Virus record (IMG/VR): IMGVR_UViG_3300022848_000022
Span: 1 to 39,298 of that record
DNA length: 39,298 bases
DNA from: a virus
Direction: 5' to 3' (one strand)
The position numbers were made by a program, and so were the translations under genes. Below are positions 1 to 35,033 of this stretch, in pieces. The notes under the pieces are model-generated. The model saw only the letters and a list, made by a program, of their open reading frames with translations, was not told the DNA's origin and ran no database searches. Every line of letters begins with the position of its first letter. The stretch's first letter is position 1.

Positions 1-252
1 GTTCCAGCGTGTTTCGTGATAGATCCCCTCAGACTTTTTGCCTGTCAAAGGTTCTGGCAAATTCTTTGTATTGAATAGCTGATAGCCCATGCCTTCGGTT
101 TCCATAACTTCGTATCCCATAATGTCATACACACCTAAAAGCCTTGTTTCGTCCAACTCAAACGCCGGTGTAACGCCCTCCGGTATAATCGTTAGCCATA
201 CGCCTTGCCCTACCATCGGTTTAACATTGCTTGTATAGATTGATACGTTCAT
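1..252 (-). CDS. hypothetical protein, 3' end cut by window edge
   Basis: The first 84 codons of a leftward gene are open to the window edge. The start at 252 is preceded by AAGGAG nine bases upstream. A second in-frame ATG at 261 touches that site and is too close to be used. The protein begins MNVSIYTSNVKPMV and looks soluble; I recognise no family. It is the first gene behind the strong leftward promoter at 324-352, so it would be the first gene of a leftward early operon. If the molecule is circular, the fragment at 39172-39298 could be its tail, but a direct join is out of frame. Confidence 0.7.
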   Translation of the reverse strand, partial: MNVSIYTSNVKPMVGQGVWLTIIPEGVTPAFELDETRLLGVYDIMGYEVMETEGMGYQLFNTKNLPEPLTGKKSEGIYHETRWN

Positions 253-323
253 TCTACTCATCTCCTTTTAATTTATAAGCCGTTTGCGTTTGCCTGTGTT
301 GTCGTCGTCGTTGGTATGTCATA

Positions 324-352
324 ACTATAACAGACGGTTAATTGACCGTCAA
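324..352 (-). promoter_or_regulatory. strong leftward promoter with palindromic operator
   Basis: On the minus strand TTGACG (352-347) is followed after exactly 17 bases by TATAGT (329-324), a near-consensus sigma-70/sigma-A promoter. The spacer and -35 are covered by an 18-bp palindrome, GACGGTTAATTGACCGTC (333-350), with perfect 6-bp outer arms. A repressor bound there would block the promoter. It drives the gene starting at 252 and possibly the whole leftward operon. Confidence 0.75.
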
Positions 353-503
353 CACTTTTTTTAATATTCTTTTAAATTTAATGCGTTGATTGCCGGAACA
401 TGGCTTATACCAGTGCTTTCGAGCGTTATTTATTTTCAGGTTGACGGACTCATACTAATAATAGCATCGATGACGGTATTGATAATGGGCGTGGTTGTGG
501 TGG

Positions 504-535
504 TGGGTGAAATAGTGGGTGAAATAGTGGGTAAC
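504..535. repeat. 12-bp tandem repeat
   Basis: GTGGGTGAAATA occurs twice in tandem and is followed by a partial third unit, GTGGGTAA. Short direct repeats like this can be protein binding sites, but nothing else identifies a function. Confidence 0.6.
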
Positions 536-702
536 GTAACTAGTTTGCAGTAATTTTATGTTAAATACTGGCTTATTGGAACATTCCCAGTTCCATCCAA
601 AAAGTTATGGTAAATGATATTATGTACTTTGCATACAGTATATGGATGACGCGACGGAGTTAAGCCATTTGTTTTTTGGTGGATTCGCCCAATTCCGTTA
701 TT

Positions 703-1017
703 TGTTACACAAATGTTACAACTTGTCCGCTGATTGGAGGGTTGTGCACGCTGAGGTTACATAAAGTACCTCCGAATTTCCAAAATATAGTAGACTCACT
801 TTTCTGAGAATGGACACGTTAGCCTTGCGCGCGTGTACCTTGTAATGTCAACCATGTGTTACAAGAGTACTATCTACTAATATAGTCCTTGTAACATTTT
901 GTAACAAATGCATAACAGAGGTATACTATAATATACGTATCTATATCAATATATACCTCTAAGCACTGGTATAGGCTAGTAATTTGTAACACTTACACTT
1001 GTATACTACTTGTTACA
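703..1017. promoter_or_regulatory. cluster of TGTTACA / TGTAACA motifs
   Basis: The 7-mer TGTTACA or its complement TGTAACA starts at 703, 714, 857, 890, 900, 985 and 1011. Several copies extend to TTGTAACA(A). Seven exact copies in about 315 bases are far more than chance (well under one expected), and both orientations are used. This looks like an array of binding sites for a phage regulator or replication protein; the protein is not identifiable from the sequence. Confidence 0.6.
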
Positions 1018-1165
1018 TCCTATTCCATAATAATTGGTAATTCCGTCCTCATTTACCCTGGTTTACACCACAAAATACAGGTACTCTATAGATGTAATGC
1101 ACCGTAAATCCTTACAACCGGCTGATACCAACGCTTTCAAGCAATCTGCCCAAACGGCAAAATAG

Positions 1166-1185
1166 GACAAAACTATAATTTTGTC
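1166..1185. promoter_or_regulatory. palindrome with central TATAAT
   Basis: GACAAAACTATAATTTTGTC is an inverted repeat with perfect 7-bp arms around CTATAA. The centre carries a consensus -10 hexamer (1174-1179), although no good -35 is present 17 bases upstream. Just downstream is an isolated perfect TTGACA (1190-1195) without a matching -10. It may be an operator or a structured element in the replication and control region. Confidence 0.45.
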
Positions 1186-1221
1186 TAATTTGACATAATA
1201 CAGGCAGTGCTCATTTGGTAT

Positions 1222-1235
1222 CGACATTAATGTCG
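1222..1235. promoter_or_regulatory. 14-bp perfect palindrome
   Basis: CGACATTAATGTCG is a perfect palindrome just upstream of the tandem 11-bp repeats. TTGGTA (1216-1221) and TAGCAT (1238-1243) lie around it at a 16-base spacing, so it may sit inside a weak promoter as an operator. This is suggestive only. Confidence 0.45.
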
Positions 1236-1244
1236 GTAGCATAC

Positions 1245-1299
1245 TCAGGCAGTGCTCAGGCAGTGCCCAGGCAGTGCCCAGGCAGTGCTCAGGCAGTAC
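1245..1299. repeat. five tandem 11-bp iteron-like repeats
   Basis: Five units of YCAGGCAGTRC start at 1245, 1256, 1267, 1278 and 1289. An isolated sixth copy (ACAGGCAGTGC) lies at 1200-1210. The 11-bp period is about one helical turn, so all copies face the same side of the DNA, as in iteron replication origins. A pyrimidine, T-rich run follows at about 1328-1357 and could melt easily. It is a candidate origin or a cooperative regulator site. Confidence 0.6.
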
Positions 1300-1439
1300 T
1301 TTGTTTTGCTTTGTGGGTATAGCCCGTCCCTTTTCTTTTCTTTTTTTATTTTTTTTGCGCGTTGCGTGGGTGGGTGGGTGCCGTGTTCGCGCGGTCCTGC
1401 ATTGGATGATTCACCCTATCGGCACCCTATCGGCACCCT

Positions 1440-1640
1440 TGCCCCCCCCCACCCTTGCCCCCCCCCACCGTGTCCCCCTGGACCGGACCCGCGCCCGGAC
1501 CGTGGCTAGGACTATGATTCTCCCTAACACGAACCCCAAACTCGACTCCTCAAACCAAGTCCCACATATTCCCATCCCCATATTCCCATCCCCATATTCC
1601 CATCCACATATTCCCATCCCCATCCCCAAGCCCCCCCCCT
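1440..1640. repeat. C-rich, strand-asymmetric low-complexity tract with 14-bp repeats
   Basis: The plus strand has runs of nine to ten C separated by ACCCTTG (about 1442-1468), then four tandem 14-bp units, MCATATTCCCATCC (1564-1577, 1578-1591, 1592-1605, 1606-1619), then another C9 run near 1631-1639. The complementary strand has many GGG runs and could form G-quadruplexes. The tract is non-coding and ends just before the early promoter. It is also prone to sequencing error. Confidence 0.65.
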
Positions 1641-1647
1641 TCGAGCA

Positions 1648-1676
1648 TTGCTATGCCCACAAAATTTTTGTATAAT
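1648..1676 (+). promoter_or_regulatory. rightward early promoter
   Basis: TTGCTA (1648-1653), a 17-base spacer and a consensus TATAAT (1671-1676) lie about 45 bases upstream of the first gene of the rightward early operon. The -35 matches four of six consensus bases and the -10 matches six of six. Confidence 0.7.
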
Positions 1677-1719
1677 TTTTAAAGTCCCAAAAACCAAATA
1701 GAGGAAGAAGGAATGCAGC

Positions 1720-2025
1720 ATGTTACCCGGATACTCCAAAGCGACAAGACCCGTCCTCCCCTTAACATTCAAGGAGAAGGTAAACAGCGCCCCCAAAGTC
1801 GAGAGCTACCAGTGTATTTACTGTGGGTTCGCATCGGATGACAAGTACGAGGTCATGTACAGGTGCCACTGCAAGGTCGCGCAACGCCTAGAACAGATTC
1901 AGGCAGGTAAAGACCCCAAAAGCAAGAAACACGCGAAGCACAGGCGCGTGGTGGGCAAGCGGAGCGCATCAGTAAGCGCCGCCTACCACTACCCCAAGAA
2001 GGTAGGGTTCAAACCGAACGAATGA
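1720..2025 (+). CDS. small basic protein with a cysteine-rich zinc-binding motif
   Basis: This 101-residue protein is the first gene of the early operon. Residues about 32-51 carry CIYC and, after a short spacer, CHC, a pattern that probably binds zinc. The C-terminal half is rich in Lys, Arg and His (for example KSKKHAKHRR), as expected for a nucleic-acid binder. The start at 1720 has AGAAGGA seven bases upstream. An out-of-frame ATG at 1713 is closer to that site but opens only a short reading frame. I do not recognise the family. Its first position in the operon suggests an early host-takeover or regulatory role, which is inference. Confidence 0.65.
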   Translation: MLPGYSKATRPVLPLTFKEKVNSAPKVESYQCIYCGFASDDKYEVMYRCHCKVAQRLEQIQAGKDPKSKKHAKHRRVVGKRSASVSAAYHYPKKVGFKPNE

Positions 2026-5527: not shown

Positions 5528-5546
5528 ACTAAACGTGTGAAAACTA

Positions 5547-5618
5547 GTAAGCATAGCTCAATTGGCAGAGCTAACACCAGGCACGGTGTTGATACAGGTT
5601 CGAGTCCTGTTGCTTGCT
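5547..5618 (+). tRNA. tRNA or tRNA-like gene, anticodon unresolved
   Basis: A 7-bp acceptor stem (GTAAGCA with TGCTTGC, one U-G pair), a D arm (GCTC, AATTGGCA, GAGC) and a perfect T arm (ACAGG, TTCGAGT, CCTGT) are present, with no encoded CCA. The anticodon arm is abnormal: AACACC pairs with GGTGTT, leaving only AGGCAC as loop, or a 5-bp stem leaves an 8-base loop. Neither gives the invariant U33. GGC (Ala) and GCA (Cys) are both possible readings; the T at the discriminator position would suit Cys. It may be a decayed tRNA, or a tRNA-like RNA not used for decoding. Confidence 0.6.
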
Positions 5619-5647
5619 TACAAGGCTGTTTTAAAACTGGTCTTGAT

Positions 5648-5689: not shown

Positions 5690-5920
5690 ATGTCACATGG
5701 AGAGTATCAAAGACACGTATCAAGAAAGCCCAGGGAAGCAAGCTGCACATGCAGTCAATACCTCGTCGGCAAGAAGCCCGGAGAAGCATCTTTTTGTCCG
5801 GCATGCTCGCTGAAGCTCACAGGCTCTGTCATGACCAACACTGTATTCACTCTCAAGGCCATTCACAGGGCTAAGGTTGCACGGCACGGCAAAGATGAGG
5901 TGAATATAGATGGAAACTAA
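5690..5920 (+). CDS. small zinc-ribbon-like protein
   Basis: A 76-residue basic protein. Cys19 and Cys21 (CTC) and Cys36 and Cys39 (CPAC) are spaced as two zinc-binding knuckles. The frame is open through the tRNA-like gene, but CGGAGGTGG just upstream of ATG 5690 gives the true start. The function is unknown; a nucleic-acid or protein contact role is likely for such a small zinc ribbon. It overlaps the next gene by 11 bases. Confidence 0.65.
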   Translation: MSHGEYQRHVSRKPREASCTCSQYLVGKKPGEASFCPACSLKLTGSVMTNTVFTLKAIHRAKVARHGKDEVNIDGN

Positions 5921-6596
5921 ACACGAGCCAGACAACAGCCTCCTCGAAGCATTAAGCAAGGAATACAATACTCCGGTCAAAGTTGGGAACATTACGCAAG
6001 TTGAAAACTGGGACGAAAGCAATGTCTTTGGCCTGATGGCAACGGTAAGTATGCATGATGCGGAGCATGATTACACATCGCTCGTAGACTATCAAAAAGT
6101 CAAAGTGGATGAGAGAGAGGGCTTAGCCGTTGCGATCCTTACCATCCGGCGAGGGCATCCGTATTTCGGGGTGCATCACAAAGATATCCAGGACCCTGAG
6201 TTTAAAAGAGTTGAACAGTTTATCGTCGGGTGTGGGCACGTCATGGAGATAGACATAGAGAACGAGGGCAACGATGACGGGGAGAGAGTAGTGGACACAA
6301 AGGATTTCTGGTCTTTCATACTGCGCATTGGCTATTGCGATGACCTGCAAGGGCCGATGATTTCAGCAATGCAAAAGCACTACAAGCACGATCCCAAGGT
6401 GCAAAGCCAGTCGAAGCAATCTTACATGGACGCGCTCAAAAGGGGTAACACTGACTACGAGGCGAAGTATATCGCCAAGCACCTGAAGCGCGTGTCGTTT
6501 TGCTGCACGTACCTCAAGCTCCCTGCGATTGAGCTTACACGATTGCTAGTAGAGGTGCAGTCGGTAAACGGCTCCCAAGACGGTGTGAAGCACTGA
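5910..6596 (+). CDS. hypothetical protein, 228 aa
   Basis: A 228-residue soluble protein of mixed charge with an acidic stretch in the middle (IENEGNDDGE). It starts inside the end of the zinc-ribbon gene. I recognise no domain. It is the last gene before the candidate origin at 6598, and its stop is almost in contact with the first DnaA box. Confidence 0.6.
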   Translation: METKHEPDNSLLEALSKEYNTPVKVGNITQVENWDESNVFGLMATVSMHDAEHDYTSLVDYQKVKVDEREGLAVAILTIRRGHPYFGVHHKDIQDPEFKRVEQFIVGCGHVMEIDIENEGNDDGERVVDTKDFWSFILRIGYCDDLQGPMISAMQKHYKHDPKVQSQSKQSYMDALKRGNTDYEAKYIAKHLKRVSFCCTYLKLPAIELTRLLVEVQSVNGSQDGVKH

Positions 6597-6597
6597 T

Positions 6598-6652
6598 TGT
6601 GGATAAGTCTGTGGATAACCCTGTGGATAAGCTGTTGGTAACATGGGGATAA
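6598..6652. promoter_or_regulatory. array of DnaA boxes
   Basis: TGTGGATAA, the complement of the consensus DnaA box TTATCCACA, occurs three times at 6598-6606, 6610-6618 and 6622-6630, exactly 12 bases apart. A near copy, TGGGGATAA, lies at 6644-6652. All face the same way. Host DnaA binds such sites and can help open neighbouring AT-rich DNA. Confidence 0.8.
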
Positions 6653-6713
6653 GTCCATAACCTGTTAACATAAATCGATATGGGTTTCGATGGATACGGC
6701 TACGCCTTTAAAA

Positions 6714-6737
6714 CTCGCTTCGCTCGAGGATTTTTTT
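6714..6737 (+). terminator. weak hairpin followed by a T run
   Basis: CTCG and CGAG pair around a 7-base loop, and a T7 run follows after GA. It is short for a terminator but could end transcripts from the upstream gene before the initiator gene. Confidence 0.3.
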
Positions 6738-6802
6738 AACTTTTAAGGATTTTTTTTAAAGAACGTGATAAGATTTGAAAAAAAATAAACTGCTTTTAGG
6801 GG

Positions 6803-6831
6803 TTGACAAGGCTTAGTCGATAGTGTAGTTA
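6803..6831 (+). promoter_or_regulatory. promoter candidate in the first duplicate unit
   Basis: A perfect TTGACA (6803-6808) is followed 17 bases later by TAGTTA, a poor -10, and by AT-rich DNA. The same sequence recurs in the second unit at 7056-7084. The weak -10 suggests it needs an activator, or that the hexamer match is chance. Confidence 0.35.
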
Positions 6832-7055
6832 AAAATATAAAAAGCACAGAAAACGAAAGCACTGGTATCAAAGGGTTTGCAGGGTTGGGGGGTGACGTGA
6901 GAGTTCATATGGGTGATCATGAGGATTCGCTACACCAAAAACACCACCGGAGGGCACTGCAGATGAGGGAATTGTCAAGAGGATTTTTTTAACTTTTAAG
7001 GATTTTTTTTAAAGAACGTGATAAGATTTAAAAAAAAATAAACTGCTTTTAGGGG

Positions 7056-7084
7056 TTGACAAGGCTTAGTCGATAGTGTAGTTA
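7056..7084 (+). promoter_or_regulatory. promoter candidate of the RepL-like gene (second unit)
   Basis: Identical copy of the 6803 promoter candidate: TTGACA, 17 bases, TAGTTA. It lies about 130 bases before the gene start at 7216. Further down, the G-to-T change at 7145 creates TTGACG (7145-7150) with GATCAT 17 bases on, a second possible promoter present only in this copy. Confidence 0.35.
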
Positions 7085-7215
7085 AAAATATAAAAAGCAC
7101 AGAAAACGAAAGCACTGGTATCAAAGGGTTTGCAGGGTTGGGGGTTGACGTGAGAGTTCATATGGGTGATCATGAGGATTCGCTACACCAAAAACACCAC
7201 CGGAGGGCACTGCAG

Positions 7216-7584
7216 ATGAGGGAATTGTCAAGAGGAATATTACAGATTGGGGAGTTTGCTATGAGCGCATTAAAATTATCTGAGGACATGTGCAATTCAA
7301 GCATGGGGGTAACAGATTACAAAGTTTTCCATTACATGTTTGCTAGGTTGCGATATGATAACACGTTTGGTTTCAGACAGTTCTTGTGTGCAAGAGATTT
7401 AAAATTGGCTAAGCAGCAAGTTAACAGGTCAGTAAAAAAGCTTATGGAAATAGGTATAATCCTCAGCGATAAAAACGATGAAGGTTTAGTCTATTCGATT
7501 AGCCCGAAATACGGACACCGGGGAAGTTACGAAAAAGGCAAAACAAAGGCATCTGAAAAGGCTAATCAGCTCTGGAATCGATAG
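7216..7584 (+). CDS. RepL-like winged-helix protein, candidate replication initiator
   Basis: A 122-residue protein. The middle has a helix-turn-helix layout: TDYKVFHYMFARL, then an ARDLKLAKQQVNRSVKKL recognition helix, then a GIILSDKND wing and SPKYG, similar to RepL and related winged-helix initiators of Bacillota plasmids and phages. GGAGGG eight bases before ATG 7216 decides the start; the frame is open from 7138, and a later ATG at 7261 also has a fair site. The gene lies next to DnaA boxes and AT-rich DNA, which supports a role in starting replication. A transcriptional regulator is the main alternative. Confidence 0.6.
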   Translation: MRELSRGILQIGEFAMSALKLSEDMCNSSMGVTDYKVFHYMFARLRYDNTFGFRQFLCARDLKLAKQQVNRSVKKLMEIGIILSDKNDEGLVYSISPKYGHRGSYEKGKTKASEKANQLWNR

Positions 7585-10643: not shown

Positions 10644-11866
10644 ATGATTGATTCACTGAAAACTTGCTTTGAAAAAATACCGGACTATAGAACAGGAAAT
10701 GGATTGAAACATAAACTAATTGATATCCTAGTACTTTCAGTATTGGGCACACTTTGTGGGGCCGATGGCTACACGGATATACAAGAATGGGGTAACTCTA
10801 ACGAGGAATGGCTCAAAGATATTTTAGAGCTTCCGTTTGGTGTGCCTAGCCATGATGTGTTCGGAGACGTACTGGGGCGCTTGGAACCCGAAGGAATCCA
10901 TGAGGCTTTTATGGAATGGGTTGCCTACTTGGACACAAAAATATCTGGGCGACAAATAGCCATCGATGGGAAAACATTATGCGGCTCTGCAGATAAAGCT
11001 AATGGAAAAAAAGCATTGCATGTCGTAAGCGCATGGGCACGAGAAACTAGCCCGTGTGGGTGCGTGGATTGAAACTTTAAGTCTATCATGTCGTAAGCGC
11101 ATGGGCACGAGAAACTAGGGTTGTTTTAGGTCAGTTAGCGACAGAAGAGAAAAGTAATGAAATAACTGCTATACCTGAATTGTTAAAGAAACTCTGTTTG
11201 AAAAATGCAGTGATCACGATCGATGCGATGGGTACTCAAAAGAAAATAGCTGAGCAGATTATTAAGCAGGAAGCCGATTATGTCCTTGCTCTAAAAGATA
11301 ATCAAAAGACGTTATGCCAGGATACAGTGCTGCTGTTTGACGAGCTGATAAGCGATATAAACCCAGAGGAAAAAGAGCTGTTGAAGCAGCAAAAGCGCTA
11401 TCATAGAACACTTGATAACAGTCATGGACGAATGGAAATCCGTGAGTACTATGTGATTCACGATATAGAATACATCAAGCAAAATCATCACTTCAAAGGG
11501 TTATCTTGTCTTGGCATGTGTGTCAGTCGCAGGCAGGTAGGCGATAAAACTACTGTAAATTATCACTACGATATTTGTAGCATTGAACATTGTACTGCCG
11601 AGGCGTATGCACAGTATAAACGCGGACATTGGTCTGTTGAAAACGGCCTCCACTGGGTATTAGACGTAGCCTTCCGAGAAGATCTCAGCAGGATTCGCAA
11701 AGGTAGTGGAGCTGAGAACGTCTCTGTATTTAGGCACCTTGCAACGAGTTTACTCAAGCAAGAACCCTCGAAACTGGGCATTGCGGCTAAGCGGAAAAAG
11801 TGTGGATGGGATAAAACATTTCTTTTTAAAGTCCTTGGAATTGATTTAACTGGGATTAATCGGTAA
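10644..11866 (+). pseudogene. ISAs1-family DDE transposase, interrupted by a 68-bp insertion
   Basis: The first part (10644-11072) ends at a stop created by the insertion; the second part (usable from about 11087) runs to 11866. Removing 68 bases restores one 384-codon frame, normal for the family. Visible features are AIDGKTLCGS, then TIDAMGTQKK (after the break) and VENGLHWVLDVAFRED, which supply the acidic catalytic residues. The insertion is a 36-base piece with CRISPR-repeat sequence flanked by a 32-base duplication of the gene. The enzyme is expected to be inactive. The break could also be an assembly error. Confidence 0.85.
11019..11118 (+). CRISPR. CRISPR-repeat fragment inside a 32-bp target duplication (neo-CRISPR-like unit)
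   Basis: A 32-base stretch of the transposase (11019-11050, beginning CATGTCGTAAG and ending GAGAAACTAG) is repeated exactly at 11087-11118. Between the copies lie 36 bases (11051-11086). The first 25 end with GTGGGTGCGTGGATTGAAAC, the 3' part of a type I-C-like repeat; the last 11 are TTTAAGTCTAT. Lengths of 32 and 36 match a type I-C repeat and spacer. The duplicated target has GTCG, TGGG and GAAAC in the same order as the repeat. This is the form expected when Cas1-Cas2 inserts a spacer at a wrong site. Confidence 0.6.
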
Positions 11867-32540: not shown

Positions 32541-35033
32541 CTAGTTAACCTCCTTAGCAAATTTGACTCTGTGTCCACGCACCACATGTCCGGCCATCTT
32601 TGGGTGTCTTGATGTGCCGGGTTCAATAATTCCGCAGTCCTTTAGCTGGCTGAGCACTGCTGTCCGGCTCAAACATATATCCTTAGCGAACGCATCGAAT
32701 GCGCTGTTAATCAAGAATATATGAGAATCCCCGGTCCACCCAAGCAAATCTCTCACGGTACCGGTTTCTGTGATGAACGGAATCCGTGAGGAGTTCTTTG
32801 CTAGCCAGTCATAAAAAGCATCAGGCACCTGCTCTATGATGGGTACCTTGATAGCCTCGTAGCCGTAGATGGCGTCCAGAAAGTCAGATAGCTTGCTAGG
32901 CTTTTCCCTCAAGTGCATGGATAATATTTCGTCAGCCAGAACTATTGCTGTTAAGTTTGCTGTGTGTTGGTTAACAGCTCCCCTATAACGTTTCATATGC
33001 TCTCTCACTTGCTCGTTGAGCACCTTGAATCTCTCTTTGATTTGACCCCGGAAGCGTTGCACATAATCAATATAGATTGGGCCTATGTGACCGTAGTTAT
33101 CCGACAGCATAGCGTACATTGCATCCGCTTTGCTCTGGTCTTCGAACGGTGCGCCATAGGCTTCTAGTACACGTGTTCGGATCCCCTGCAGGTTACTCTT
33201 GTCCGTGAGTGGAAACTCGCCGGAGGTAACGAAGCATAAACGCCATGAATCGACGGGTACGCTCTCAAGCCTTACGTTCGAACGTGCCTTTGACACCCCT
33301 TGAATGAGCTTGTATATCTCATTAACAAACTTCTCTTTTTCAAACTCGTTGAGCATTTGATATTCGTCCAGGCATAAGCCGATATCGTTGTGCTGCGCTG
33401 CTGCTCTTTCTAATCCAGTGATGGTCGAATTGAATGTCCGGATAACCTTTTCCGGATCACCATACAGGGAACAGGCCAGCTTTTGAGCGCAGGTCTTGCC
33501 TACCCCGGATTGATGGTTGAACATGTGAAAGAAGAATGAGCGCAGGTTAAGTATCTTGAGTAGTGCGCTGGATGCGTACGCAGCCATGACCGCGCGAACA
33601 AAGTAGTTTTTCCTCGCGTCCACCGCTCCTGCTACCCACGTACTAATATCTCCAGATGCTTCATATCCGGCAAACAGGTTAGTATCAACACACGCATCCG
33701 CTGACATTTTGAGTGGCACGAACTCACGCATGTTGTTGCTCCACCCTCCGCGCTGGTACTGCGTCTTGTAAGGCGTCTCAGGGTTGTAACGGAGCAAGTC
33801 ACACATGAAGTTGGCTAATCGCTTTGAACTGCTCTCGGACACGTCAAGCCCCCTATCAGCGAGTTCAAGTATCTTGCGTCCGGACACGACATCCCCTCGT
33901 TTCACAGTCGTGTATATCCACCCTTTGATATGGTGCCGGAAGCAAAGTCGTACATACTCTAAGCCGGAATCATCCGTGAGGATAGCGTCAATGCAGATAG
34001 GTGTGCTTGTTACCAGCTTTGCGCTACCGTCCTCGTCGTAGCAGTAGATGCCACGCTTGGTGAAGGTGTAGCCGTTAGGCGTGTTGAAGGCAACAGGGCA
34101 GTCGTGTGATTTGCGTGCAAGCTCGTTGCGCTCCACCAGCACGGCTCCTGCCATCACCTTGTCCCAATTTTCTTTAAAGTTAATGCACTGCAGGTGCATG
34201 TCGGAAGGATCCTTGTATCCGATTGCAGCCGATGAAAGGCGATATACCTTTACATCAGACGCCCAAGCAGCACTGGCAATATCCCTGAAGAAATGCTCTC
34301 CGGCATCCTGCTTTTCGTCCGGTGGTTCGACTAATACATACACGTTCTTGACGTGCGGTATAACCTTTACAAAGTCTTTGTTGAATGCCGTTGCTCCGGG
34401 TACACCATATGCCGGAACTCGGTGGTGCCATAAGGTATGACAGTCTGACTCACCTTCGACAAAGACGATGCTCTCAGAGTTCTTGTTTAGGTCCAGCCAT
34501 AGGCCATAGAGAGAGACAACATTCTTTTCGTCCCACCCAAACTTGGGCCGTCCTTCAGTCCGGTATCTAACTGCAGTAACGACACCCTCCGGATTCATGT
34601 ATGGCATGGCAACGCAGTGTAGTTTCCACTGAGGATGCACCTTGTCTGTTACCGCCAGCGACATGAGGAATTCTGGTGGTATCTTCTTCATGTTGGAGTA
34701 GCCAGTCAGGGAGAGTGCTTCACGTGCGGAACGACTCTTCTTTTTCTTTGGCTCGTCAATGACTCCACCAAGCGCCATAACATGTTTAAATGCATCACCT
34801 GCAGAGAGATTAAGTACCTTCTCGAATATCTGGTGCCCGTTGCCAGTGCAAAGACAGGCTCCACGACATTGCCACATACCATTCTTACCGTTGAAGGTGA
34901 ATGATGCGTGTTTATCATCATGCCCAGGTATCGGGCACGACATAGAGTAGTTGTCTCCGGTTGATTTTTTAGGCTTGCCCCAGGCAGCGAAAACATCTAC
35001 CCAGTTAATGTGTAGCGCGTCATAGGCAGCCAT
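32541..35033 (-). CDS. primase-helicase with zinc finger, TOPRIM and ATPase domains
   Basis: An 830-residue protein. The N-terminus has a CHC2-type zinc finger (Cys33, His38, Cys56, Cys60/62), followed by a TOPRIM-like part with VFVEGESDCHTL and VYVLVEPPDE. The C-terminal half resembles DUF927: Walker A HQSGVGKTCAQ and Walker B LCLDEYQ. It would make primers and unwind DNA at the fork, as the T7 gp4 type does. GGGGGTG precedes ATG 35033. A few genes upstream in the same operon are the candidate binding protein and the SNF2-type helicase. Confidence 0.8.
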   Translation of the reverse strand: MAAYDALHINWVDVFAAWGKPKKSTGDNYSMSCPIPGHDDKHASFTFNGKNGMWQCRGACLCTGNGHQIFEKVLNLSAGDAFKHVMALGGVIDEPKKKKSRSAREALSLTGYSNMKKIPPEFLMSLAVTDKVHPQWKLHCVAMPYMNPEGVVTAVRYRTEGRPKFGWDEKNVVSLYGLWLDLNKNSESIVFVEGESDCHTLWHHRVPAYGVPGATAFNKDFVKVIPHVKNVYVLVEPPDEKQDAGEHFFRDIASAAWASDVKVYRLSSAAIGYKDPSDMHLQCINFKENWDKVMAGAVLVERNELARKSHDCPVAFNTPNGYTFTKRGIYCYDEDGSAKLVTSTPICIDAILTDDSGLEYVRLCFRHHIKGWIYTTVKRGDVVSGRKILELADRGLDVSESSSKRLANFMCDLLRYNPETPYKTQYQRGGWSNNMREFVPLKMSADACVDTNLFAGYEASGDISTWVAGAVDARKNYFVRAVMAAYASSALLKILNLRSFFFHMFNHQSGVGKTCAQKLACSLYGDPEKVIRTFNSTITGLERAAAQHNDIGLCLDEYQMLNEFEKEKFVNEIYKLIQGVSKARSNVRLESVPVDSWRLCFVTSGEFPLTDKSNLQGIRTRVLEAYGAPFEDQSKADAMYAMLSDNYGHIGPIYIDYVQRFRGQIKERFKVLNEQVREHMKRYRGAVNQHTANLTAIVLADEILSMHLREKPSKLSDFLDAIYGYEAIKVPIIEQVPDAFYDWLAKNSSRIPFITETGTVRDLLGWTGDSHIFLINSAFDAFAKDICLSRTAVLSQLKDCGIIEPGTSRHPKMAGHVVRGHRVKFAKEVN

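What the first reader, a model, noticed from the sequence alone, without database searches (positions are those of the whole stretch)
6598..7584. Candidate replication origin with three perfect DnaA boxes on a 12-bp period next to a RepL-like gene
TGTGGATAA occurs at 6598, 6610 and 6622, with a near match at 6644, all in one orientation. AT-rich DNA and a winged-helix initiator-like gene follow. The phage has a primase-helicase but no DNA polymerase in the window, so recruitment of the host replisome through DnaA is plausible. A plasmid-like stage (phage-plasmid) is also possible.
Basis: partly seen in the sequence, partly recalled or inferred. Interest (0 to 1): 0.65.

Follow-up and report, generated by a model that had tools for sequence, protein, structure and literature searches.

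The report
DnaA-box array beside RepL-like phage gene
An uncultivated phage carries a row of five evenly spaced docking sites for the host's replication-starter protein DnaA, next to an easily melted stretch of DNA and a plasmid-type replication gene; it may be a replication origin, but similar arrays occur in many unrelated phages, including some that do not need DnaA.

Summary
Perfect boxes lie at 6598, 6610 and 6622 and a one-mismatch box at 6644; I add a weak box at 6633, so starts step 12, 12, 11, 11. These are the only perfect DnaA boxes in the 41.1-kb circle reconstructed with a sister contig, and chance is negligible. The 12-bp doublet occurs in at least 119 viral contigs; its reversed control occurs in none.

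The 107-122-aa gene is homologous to sole HTH/RepL-type proteins of 1.4-4 kb plasmids. Seven of ten phage genes tested that contain such doublets are O-like/initiator genes.

Against a simple DnaA origin: the plasmid relatives have no array, and RepL plasmids are classed as rolling-circle. There is no DnaA-trio and no iterons, and the AT tract lies on the non-canonical side. T5-, T7- and T4-like phages also carry such arrays. The phage encodes its own primase-helicase. No integrase or partition gene was found, so a phage-plasmid is unsupported.

Best reading: a DnaA-assisted origin or replication-control region (about 50%). Titration, promoter control, or an origin at 0.25-1.8 kb remain open.

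The parts
5910..6596 (+). 228-aa orphan gene; its stop codon is immediately followed by the array
   Evidence: No Pfam, PHROG or NCBIfam match; no tblastn match in phages or plasmids; single-sequence fold uninformative
6598..6606 (+). DnaA box 1, TGTGGATAA
6610..6618 (+). DnaA box 2, TGTGGATAA
6622..6630 (+). DnaA box 3, TGTGGATAA
6644..6652 (+). weak box 5, TGGGGATAA (1 mismatch)
6726..6978 (+). first copy of a 253-bp tandem duplication (AT tract, RBS, start codon; leads into a 9-codon truncated reading frame MRELSRGFF* at 6963-6992)
6979..7231 (+). second copy of the duplication, leading into the intact gene
6729..6800 (.). AT tract of copy 1; DUE-like; third least stable 60-bp stretch of the circle
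6982..7053 (.). AT tract of copy 2; contains the least stable 60-bp stretch of the circle
7216..7584 (+). RepL-like winged-helix gene (122 aa from ATG 7216, 107 aa from ATG 7261)
   Evidence: tblastn to small-plasmid HTH/RepL proteins; 34% over 79 aa with pJW1, 29% over 91 aa with pKM19s; relatives pass PF05732 cut-off, the window protein does not
32541..35033 (-). DUF927 primase-helicase with zinc ribbon: the phage's own replication module
250..1770 (.). rival origin candidate: divergent, largely non-coding region with 11-14-bp tandem repeats (503-532, 1244-1297, 1560-1623), the least stable 100 bp (863) and the cumulative GC-skew minimum (1770)

Best explanation
The region is a host-DnaA-binding replication-control element, most likely a DnaA-assisted origin or part of one. 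Shown: five same-strand, helically phased DnaA-box-like sites (three consensus, then two weak ones towards the AT tract), a duplicated tract that includes the most easily melted DNA of the genome, and a winged-helix protein homologous to RepL-type proteins of minimal plasmids. Inferred: host DnaA nucleates on the three strong boxes and extends over the weak ones; the RepL-like protein binds the leader/AT region, helps melting and autoregulates its promoter; the phage's DUF927 primase-helicase or host DnaB is then loaded; host Pol III copies the DNA.
For: Array far beyond chance. The 12-bp doublet is found in at least 119 viral contigs against 0 for the reversed control, and same-strand box spacings peak at 11-12, 21 and 32 bp (142 of 167 in phase; control 30 of 116), as cooperative DnaA binding would give. 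Of 10 phage genes tested that contain a doublet, 7 match replication-initiator families, and microviruses carry 4-5 boxes at or just after the end of their Rep gene, one with the identical 12,12,11,11 spacing. AT tracts adjacent. RepL-type homology; 8 of 9 members of that family alignment match an O-like initiation PHROG. P1, F, RK2 and pSC101 origins use DnaA boxes beside a winged-helix Rep (PMC4980987).
Against: No iterons. No DnaA-trio on either side, and the AT tract lies 3' of TGTGGATAA whereas in E. coli and B. subtilis the unwinding element lies 5' of it (established knowledge). Plasmid relatives of the gene lack arrays. RepL plasmids are classed as rolling-circle. GC skew does not turn here. 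Phages with autonomous replication also carry such arrays. Many arrays in the viral sample sit beside terminase genes rather than initiators. The window protein itself falls below the RepL cut-off.
Confidence: 0.5

Rival explanations
1. The array is a DnaA sponge or host-interaction site: multiplying phage DNA titrates host DnaA and slows host initiation, or anchors incoming DNA, without being an origin.
For: Arrays occur in T7-like, T5-like and T4-like phages that bring their own replication enzymes. In T5 they lie in the injection-stop region, where DnaA boxes are described (PMC13250531). Plasmids carrying DnaA boxes titrate DnaA and delay chromosome initiation (PMC5835720).
Against: Only five sites here; adjacent AT tract and RepL-like gene; in other phages arrays are strikingly often inside or next to initiator genes.
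Confidence: 0.2
2. The array is a DnaA-responsive operator: DnaA bound upstream activates or represses the duplicated promoter of the RepL-like gene, tying its expression to host DnaA.
For: Array lies upstream of the duplicated leader with RBS and start codon. DnaA is known to stimulate lambda pR and thereby origin activity (PMC7466680).
Against: It is about 600 bp from the intact start codon, and promoter predictions in the region are no better than shuffles (4 vs 2.7).
Confidence: 0.13
3. The origin is elsewhere: the divergent non-coding region at about 0.25-1.8 kb, served by the DUF927 primase-helicase module, is the true origin, and the array is secondary.
For: Least stable 100 bp of the circle at 863, cumulative GC-skew minimum at 1770, 11-14-bp tandem repeats. 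The primase-helicase/SNF2-helicase module also occurs in THSA-485A, which has a single perfect DnaA box.
Against: Skew follows gene orientation (negative also over the minus-strand genes at 4.4-5.5 kb), so it cannot place an origin; no known initiator site was shown there.
Confidence: 0.15
4. Chance or assembly artefact.
For: Neither sister contig covers 221-8795, so array and duplication rest on one assembly.
Against: Chance about 7e-9; conserved boxes with variable linkers; the duplicate copies differ at 2 of 258 positions.
Confidence: 0.02

Closest known systems
Plasmid RepL / pSN2-type initiators (PF05732) and the related sole HTH proteins of tiny plasmids (pJW1, 1,410 bp; pBT3, 1,975 bp; pKM19s)
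   Same: Homologous winged-helix domain and C-terminal NP-x-x-x-x-[RK]G-like motif
   Different: Window protein below the Pfam cut-off and shorter at the N-terminus; the ten plasmid loci examined have no DnaA array near the gene
Theta plasmid origins with DnaA boxes (RK2 oriV, P1 oriR, F, pSC101)
   Same: Clustered DnaA boxes, AT-rich tract, winged-helix Rep nearby
   Different: No Rep iterons between 6400 and 7700; the Rep family is different
Phage O-like or initiator genes with internal DnaA doublets (L004, L007, L035, L060, L077, L089, L114)
   Same: Same 12-bp doublet, linked to winged-helix initiators
   Different: There the array is inside the initiator gene; here it is upstream, after an orphan gene
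Microviruses bajarodmic virus 162 and mar39
   Same: 4-5 same-strand perfect boxes at or just after the stop codon of the upstream gene, spaced 12,12,11,11 or 11,11,11
   Different: Small ssDNA phages; the upstream gene is a Rep, here it is an orphan
T5 injection-stop region
   Same: DnaA boxes in phase (PMC13250531)
   Different: Lies in the terminal repeat of a virulent phage with its own replication enzymes; no RepL-like gene there

Membership tests
RepL (PF05732) | Score above the curated Pfam cut-off (20.3 bits) | tested here: not met
   12.4 bits, E 0.12
RepL (PF05732) | Homology to proteins that pass the cut-off | tested here: met
   pJW1 (23.1 bits) and pKM19s (29.8 bits) proteins align with the window protein at 34% and 29% identity
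RepL (PF05732) | Supports autonomous plasmid replication | not testable with these tools
   needs a mini-replicon test
RepL (PF05732) | Double-strand and single-strand origin of rolling-circle type | not tested
   described for pSN2 in PMC5703833
DnaA-dependent origin (oriC-like, basal unwinding system) | Cluster of consensus DnaA boxes in helical phase | tested here: met
DnaA-dependent origin (oriC-like, basal unwinding system) | Adjacent easily melted AT-rich element | tested here: met
   ranks 1 and 3 among 60-bp windows of the circle
DnaA-dependent origin (oriC-like, basal unwinding system) | DnaA-trio repeats 3' of TTATCCACA, on the unwinding side | tested here: not met
   longest run 1 trio on the canonical side, 2 on the other; trios are absent from some oriCs (PMC8235120)
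DnaA-dependent origin (oriC-like, basal unwinding system) | GC-skew turning point | tested here: inconclusive
   minimum at 1770, but skew follows gene strand
DnaA-dependent origin (oriC-like, basal unwinding system) | Replication depends on DnaA | not testable with these tools
   needs footprinting and mapping
Iteron theta plasmid origin | Repeated 17-22-bp Rep-binding iterons beside rep | tested here: not met
   only the 253-bp duplication and a box-derived 12-mer were found
Phage-plasmid | Partition, plasmid-maintenance or lysogeny genes | tested here: not met
   no integrase, repressor or ParA/B among the proteins scanned; some small ORFs, the 1558-aa protein and the 1.8-kb gap were not scanned
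Phage-plasmid | Circular genome | tested here: inconclusive
   sister contig joins the window's ends through 1,789 nt; a circularly permuted linear phage would look the same

The most novel reading that the evidence does not exclude
Helically phased DnaA-box arrays are a convergent module in unrelated phages (ssDNA microviruses, T5-, T7- and T4-like phages, O-type phages), used to capture host DnaA for phage replication, host shut-off or DNA entry. This phage pairs one with a RepL-type protein, a combination not seen in the RepL plasmids examined, as an origin separate from its own primase-helicase system.
Probability: 0.25. Interest if true: 0.7.

Novelty: new member of a known kind. Interest (0 to 1): 0.42.

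Why it matters
How most phages start replication is unmapped. A simple sequence signature (same-strand DnaA boxes spaced 11-12 bp) that is strongly enriched in viral contigs and often sits in or beside initiator genes could locate candidate origins or DnaA-capture sites in thousands of uncultivated phages. The presence of the same arrays in phages thought not to need DnaA makes the function an open and testable question.

Tried and rejected
Close relatives of the RepL-like gene and of the 5910-6596 gene in viral contigs: none. AlphaFold without an alignment gave unusable models (pLDDT 42 and 35), so no fold search was made. AT-content profile around 98 viral arrays showed no consistent side. 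Sister contig G1 looked like an alternative left arm but carries a second terminase gene and joins at a shared fibre gene, so it is most likely a chimera. The ISAs1 transposase as a host marker gave only 47% best full-length identity (Clostridia on top), not a host assignment.

Full report
Where it lies. The window is an IMG/VR virus record: a tailed phage with terminase, portal and head genes on the + strand, and, on the - strand, an endolysin, a RusA-like resolvase, a DUF927 primase-helicase and an SNF2-type helicase. Two contigs from other metagenomes share identical DNA. One of them (G2) joins the window's end to its start through 1,789 extra bases, so the map is circular or circularly permuted, about 41.1 kb. 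The other (G1) is probably chimeric. Neither covers the array, so the array and the duplication rest on one assembly.

Observation. The three perfect boxes and the near match are exactly where stated. A further weak site at 6633 makes a five-site row with starts 12, 12, 11 and 11 bp apart. No other perfect box exists in the circle. Single one-mismatch boxes are not in excess; the cluster is (no perfect pair within 60 bp in 100 simulated genomes; about 7e-9). Between the three units only the linker columns vary.

Between the array and the gene lies a 253-bp tandem duplication, 99% identical. Each copy holds an AT tract of about 22% GC that ranks first or third among all 60-bp windows of the circle for low duplex stability, plus a ribosome-binding site and a start codon. 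The first copy leads only into a nine-codon frame, the second into the intact gene. Because the copies differ at two positions, a real duplication is more likely than an assembly loop, but reads are needed.

The gene. No family library names it outright (weak PHROG hits), but tblastn against plasmids finds HTH proteins of very small plasmids, of which the 1,410-bp pJW1 and 1,975-bp pBT3 encode hardly anything else. Pairwise identity is 34% over 79 residues to pJW1 and 29% over 91 to pKM19s, including the C-terminal motif. Several of these relatives pass the Pfam RepL cut-off; the window protein reaches 12.4 of 20.3 bits. Eight of the nine members of the family alignment match an O-like replication-initiation PHROG. 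So 'RepL-like' is right as homology, but formal membership was tested and not met. None of ten plasmid loci has a DnaA array near the gene, and a review classes RepL plasmids as rolling-circle (PMC5703833). The gene and the array are therefore independent parts.

Comparative evidence on the array. The exact 12-bp doublet occurs in at least 119 viral contigs, where the scan stopped, and its reversed control in none. In a scan with free spacing, same-strand boxes lie 11-12, 21 and 32 bp apart: 142 of 167 pairs are in helical phase, against 30 of 116 for the control word. Of ten viral genes that contain a doublet and were scanned, seven match replication-initiator families. Genes around a wider sample are mixed: initiators and ParB, but also several terminase genes. 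Among named phages, microviruses carry the row at or just after the end of Rep, one with exactly this 12,12,11,11 spacing. T7-like phages have it between the terminase end and the first early gene, a Klebsiella T7-like phage near its genome end, T5-like phages in the terminal-repeat region of the injection stop signal, and Vibrio T4-like phages between small genes. DnaA boxes at the T5 injection stop are described in print (PMC13250531). T5-, T7- and T4-like phages bring their own replication enzymes (established knowledge), so an array does not by itself mean a DnaA-dependent origin.

Mechanism. I commit to a DnaA-assisted origin or replication-control region at about 50%. Steps shown: box row, phasing, melting-prone tract, initiator-family homology of the gene. 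Steps inferred: DnaA binding, strand opening at the duplicated tract, helicase loading, host polymerase. Against it stand the missing DnaA-trio, the AT tract on the side opposite to the E. coli/B. subtilis arrangement, the absence of iterons, and a rival low-stability, repeat-bearing divergent region at 0.25-1.8 kb where cumulative GC skew is lowest. Skew follows gene direction here and cannot decide. The phage-plasmid idea has no gene-content support.

Verdict. The broader signature, phased DnaA-box rows across unrelated phages, is the more interesting lead.

Noticed in passing
window 6726-7236: 253-bp tandem duplication of an AT-rich leader with RBS and start codon; the first copy yields only a 9-codon frame (MRELSRGFF*).
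   Followed up: partly
window 5546-5619: A tRNA gene (Rfam 42.7 bits) for which ARAGORN calls a four-base anticodon ggca, i.e. an enlarged anticodon loop, just upstream of this region.
   Followed up: no
window 10644-11866: ISAs1-family transposase split by a frameshift; a 32-bp direct repeat (11019-11050 / 11087-11118) lies at the break and is present in all three assemblies.
   Followed up: partly
L123:374-2278 (contig G1): TerL of the other phage in the chimeric contig appears to hold an intein-like insert (CFVGETELITPTG ... VEGNHNFYANDILAHN), judged by eye from the translation.
   Followed up: no
G2 contig positions 304-363 and 1415-1472 (inside the 1,789-nt gap): A 60-bp repeat, 93% identical, lies beside genes that look like RadC-type and DnaJ-type by eye.
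   Followed up: no
window 503-532, 1244-1297, 1560-1623: Tandem repeats of 11-14 bp in and beside the divergent non-coding region, a possible alternative origin or regulatory region.
   Followed up: partly
L440:1503-1557; L445:1525-1566: ssDNA microviruses carry 4-5 consensus DnaA boxes spaced 11-12 bp at or just after the end of the Rep gene.
   Followed up: partly
L444:1513-1615; L448:1501-1543; L447:2501-2529; L441:1136-1232: DnaA-box rows in T7-like, T5-like and T4-like phages that encode their own replication enzymes; in the T7-like ones between the terminase gene and the first early gene.
   Followed up: partly
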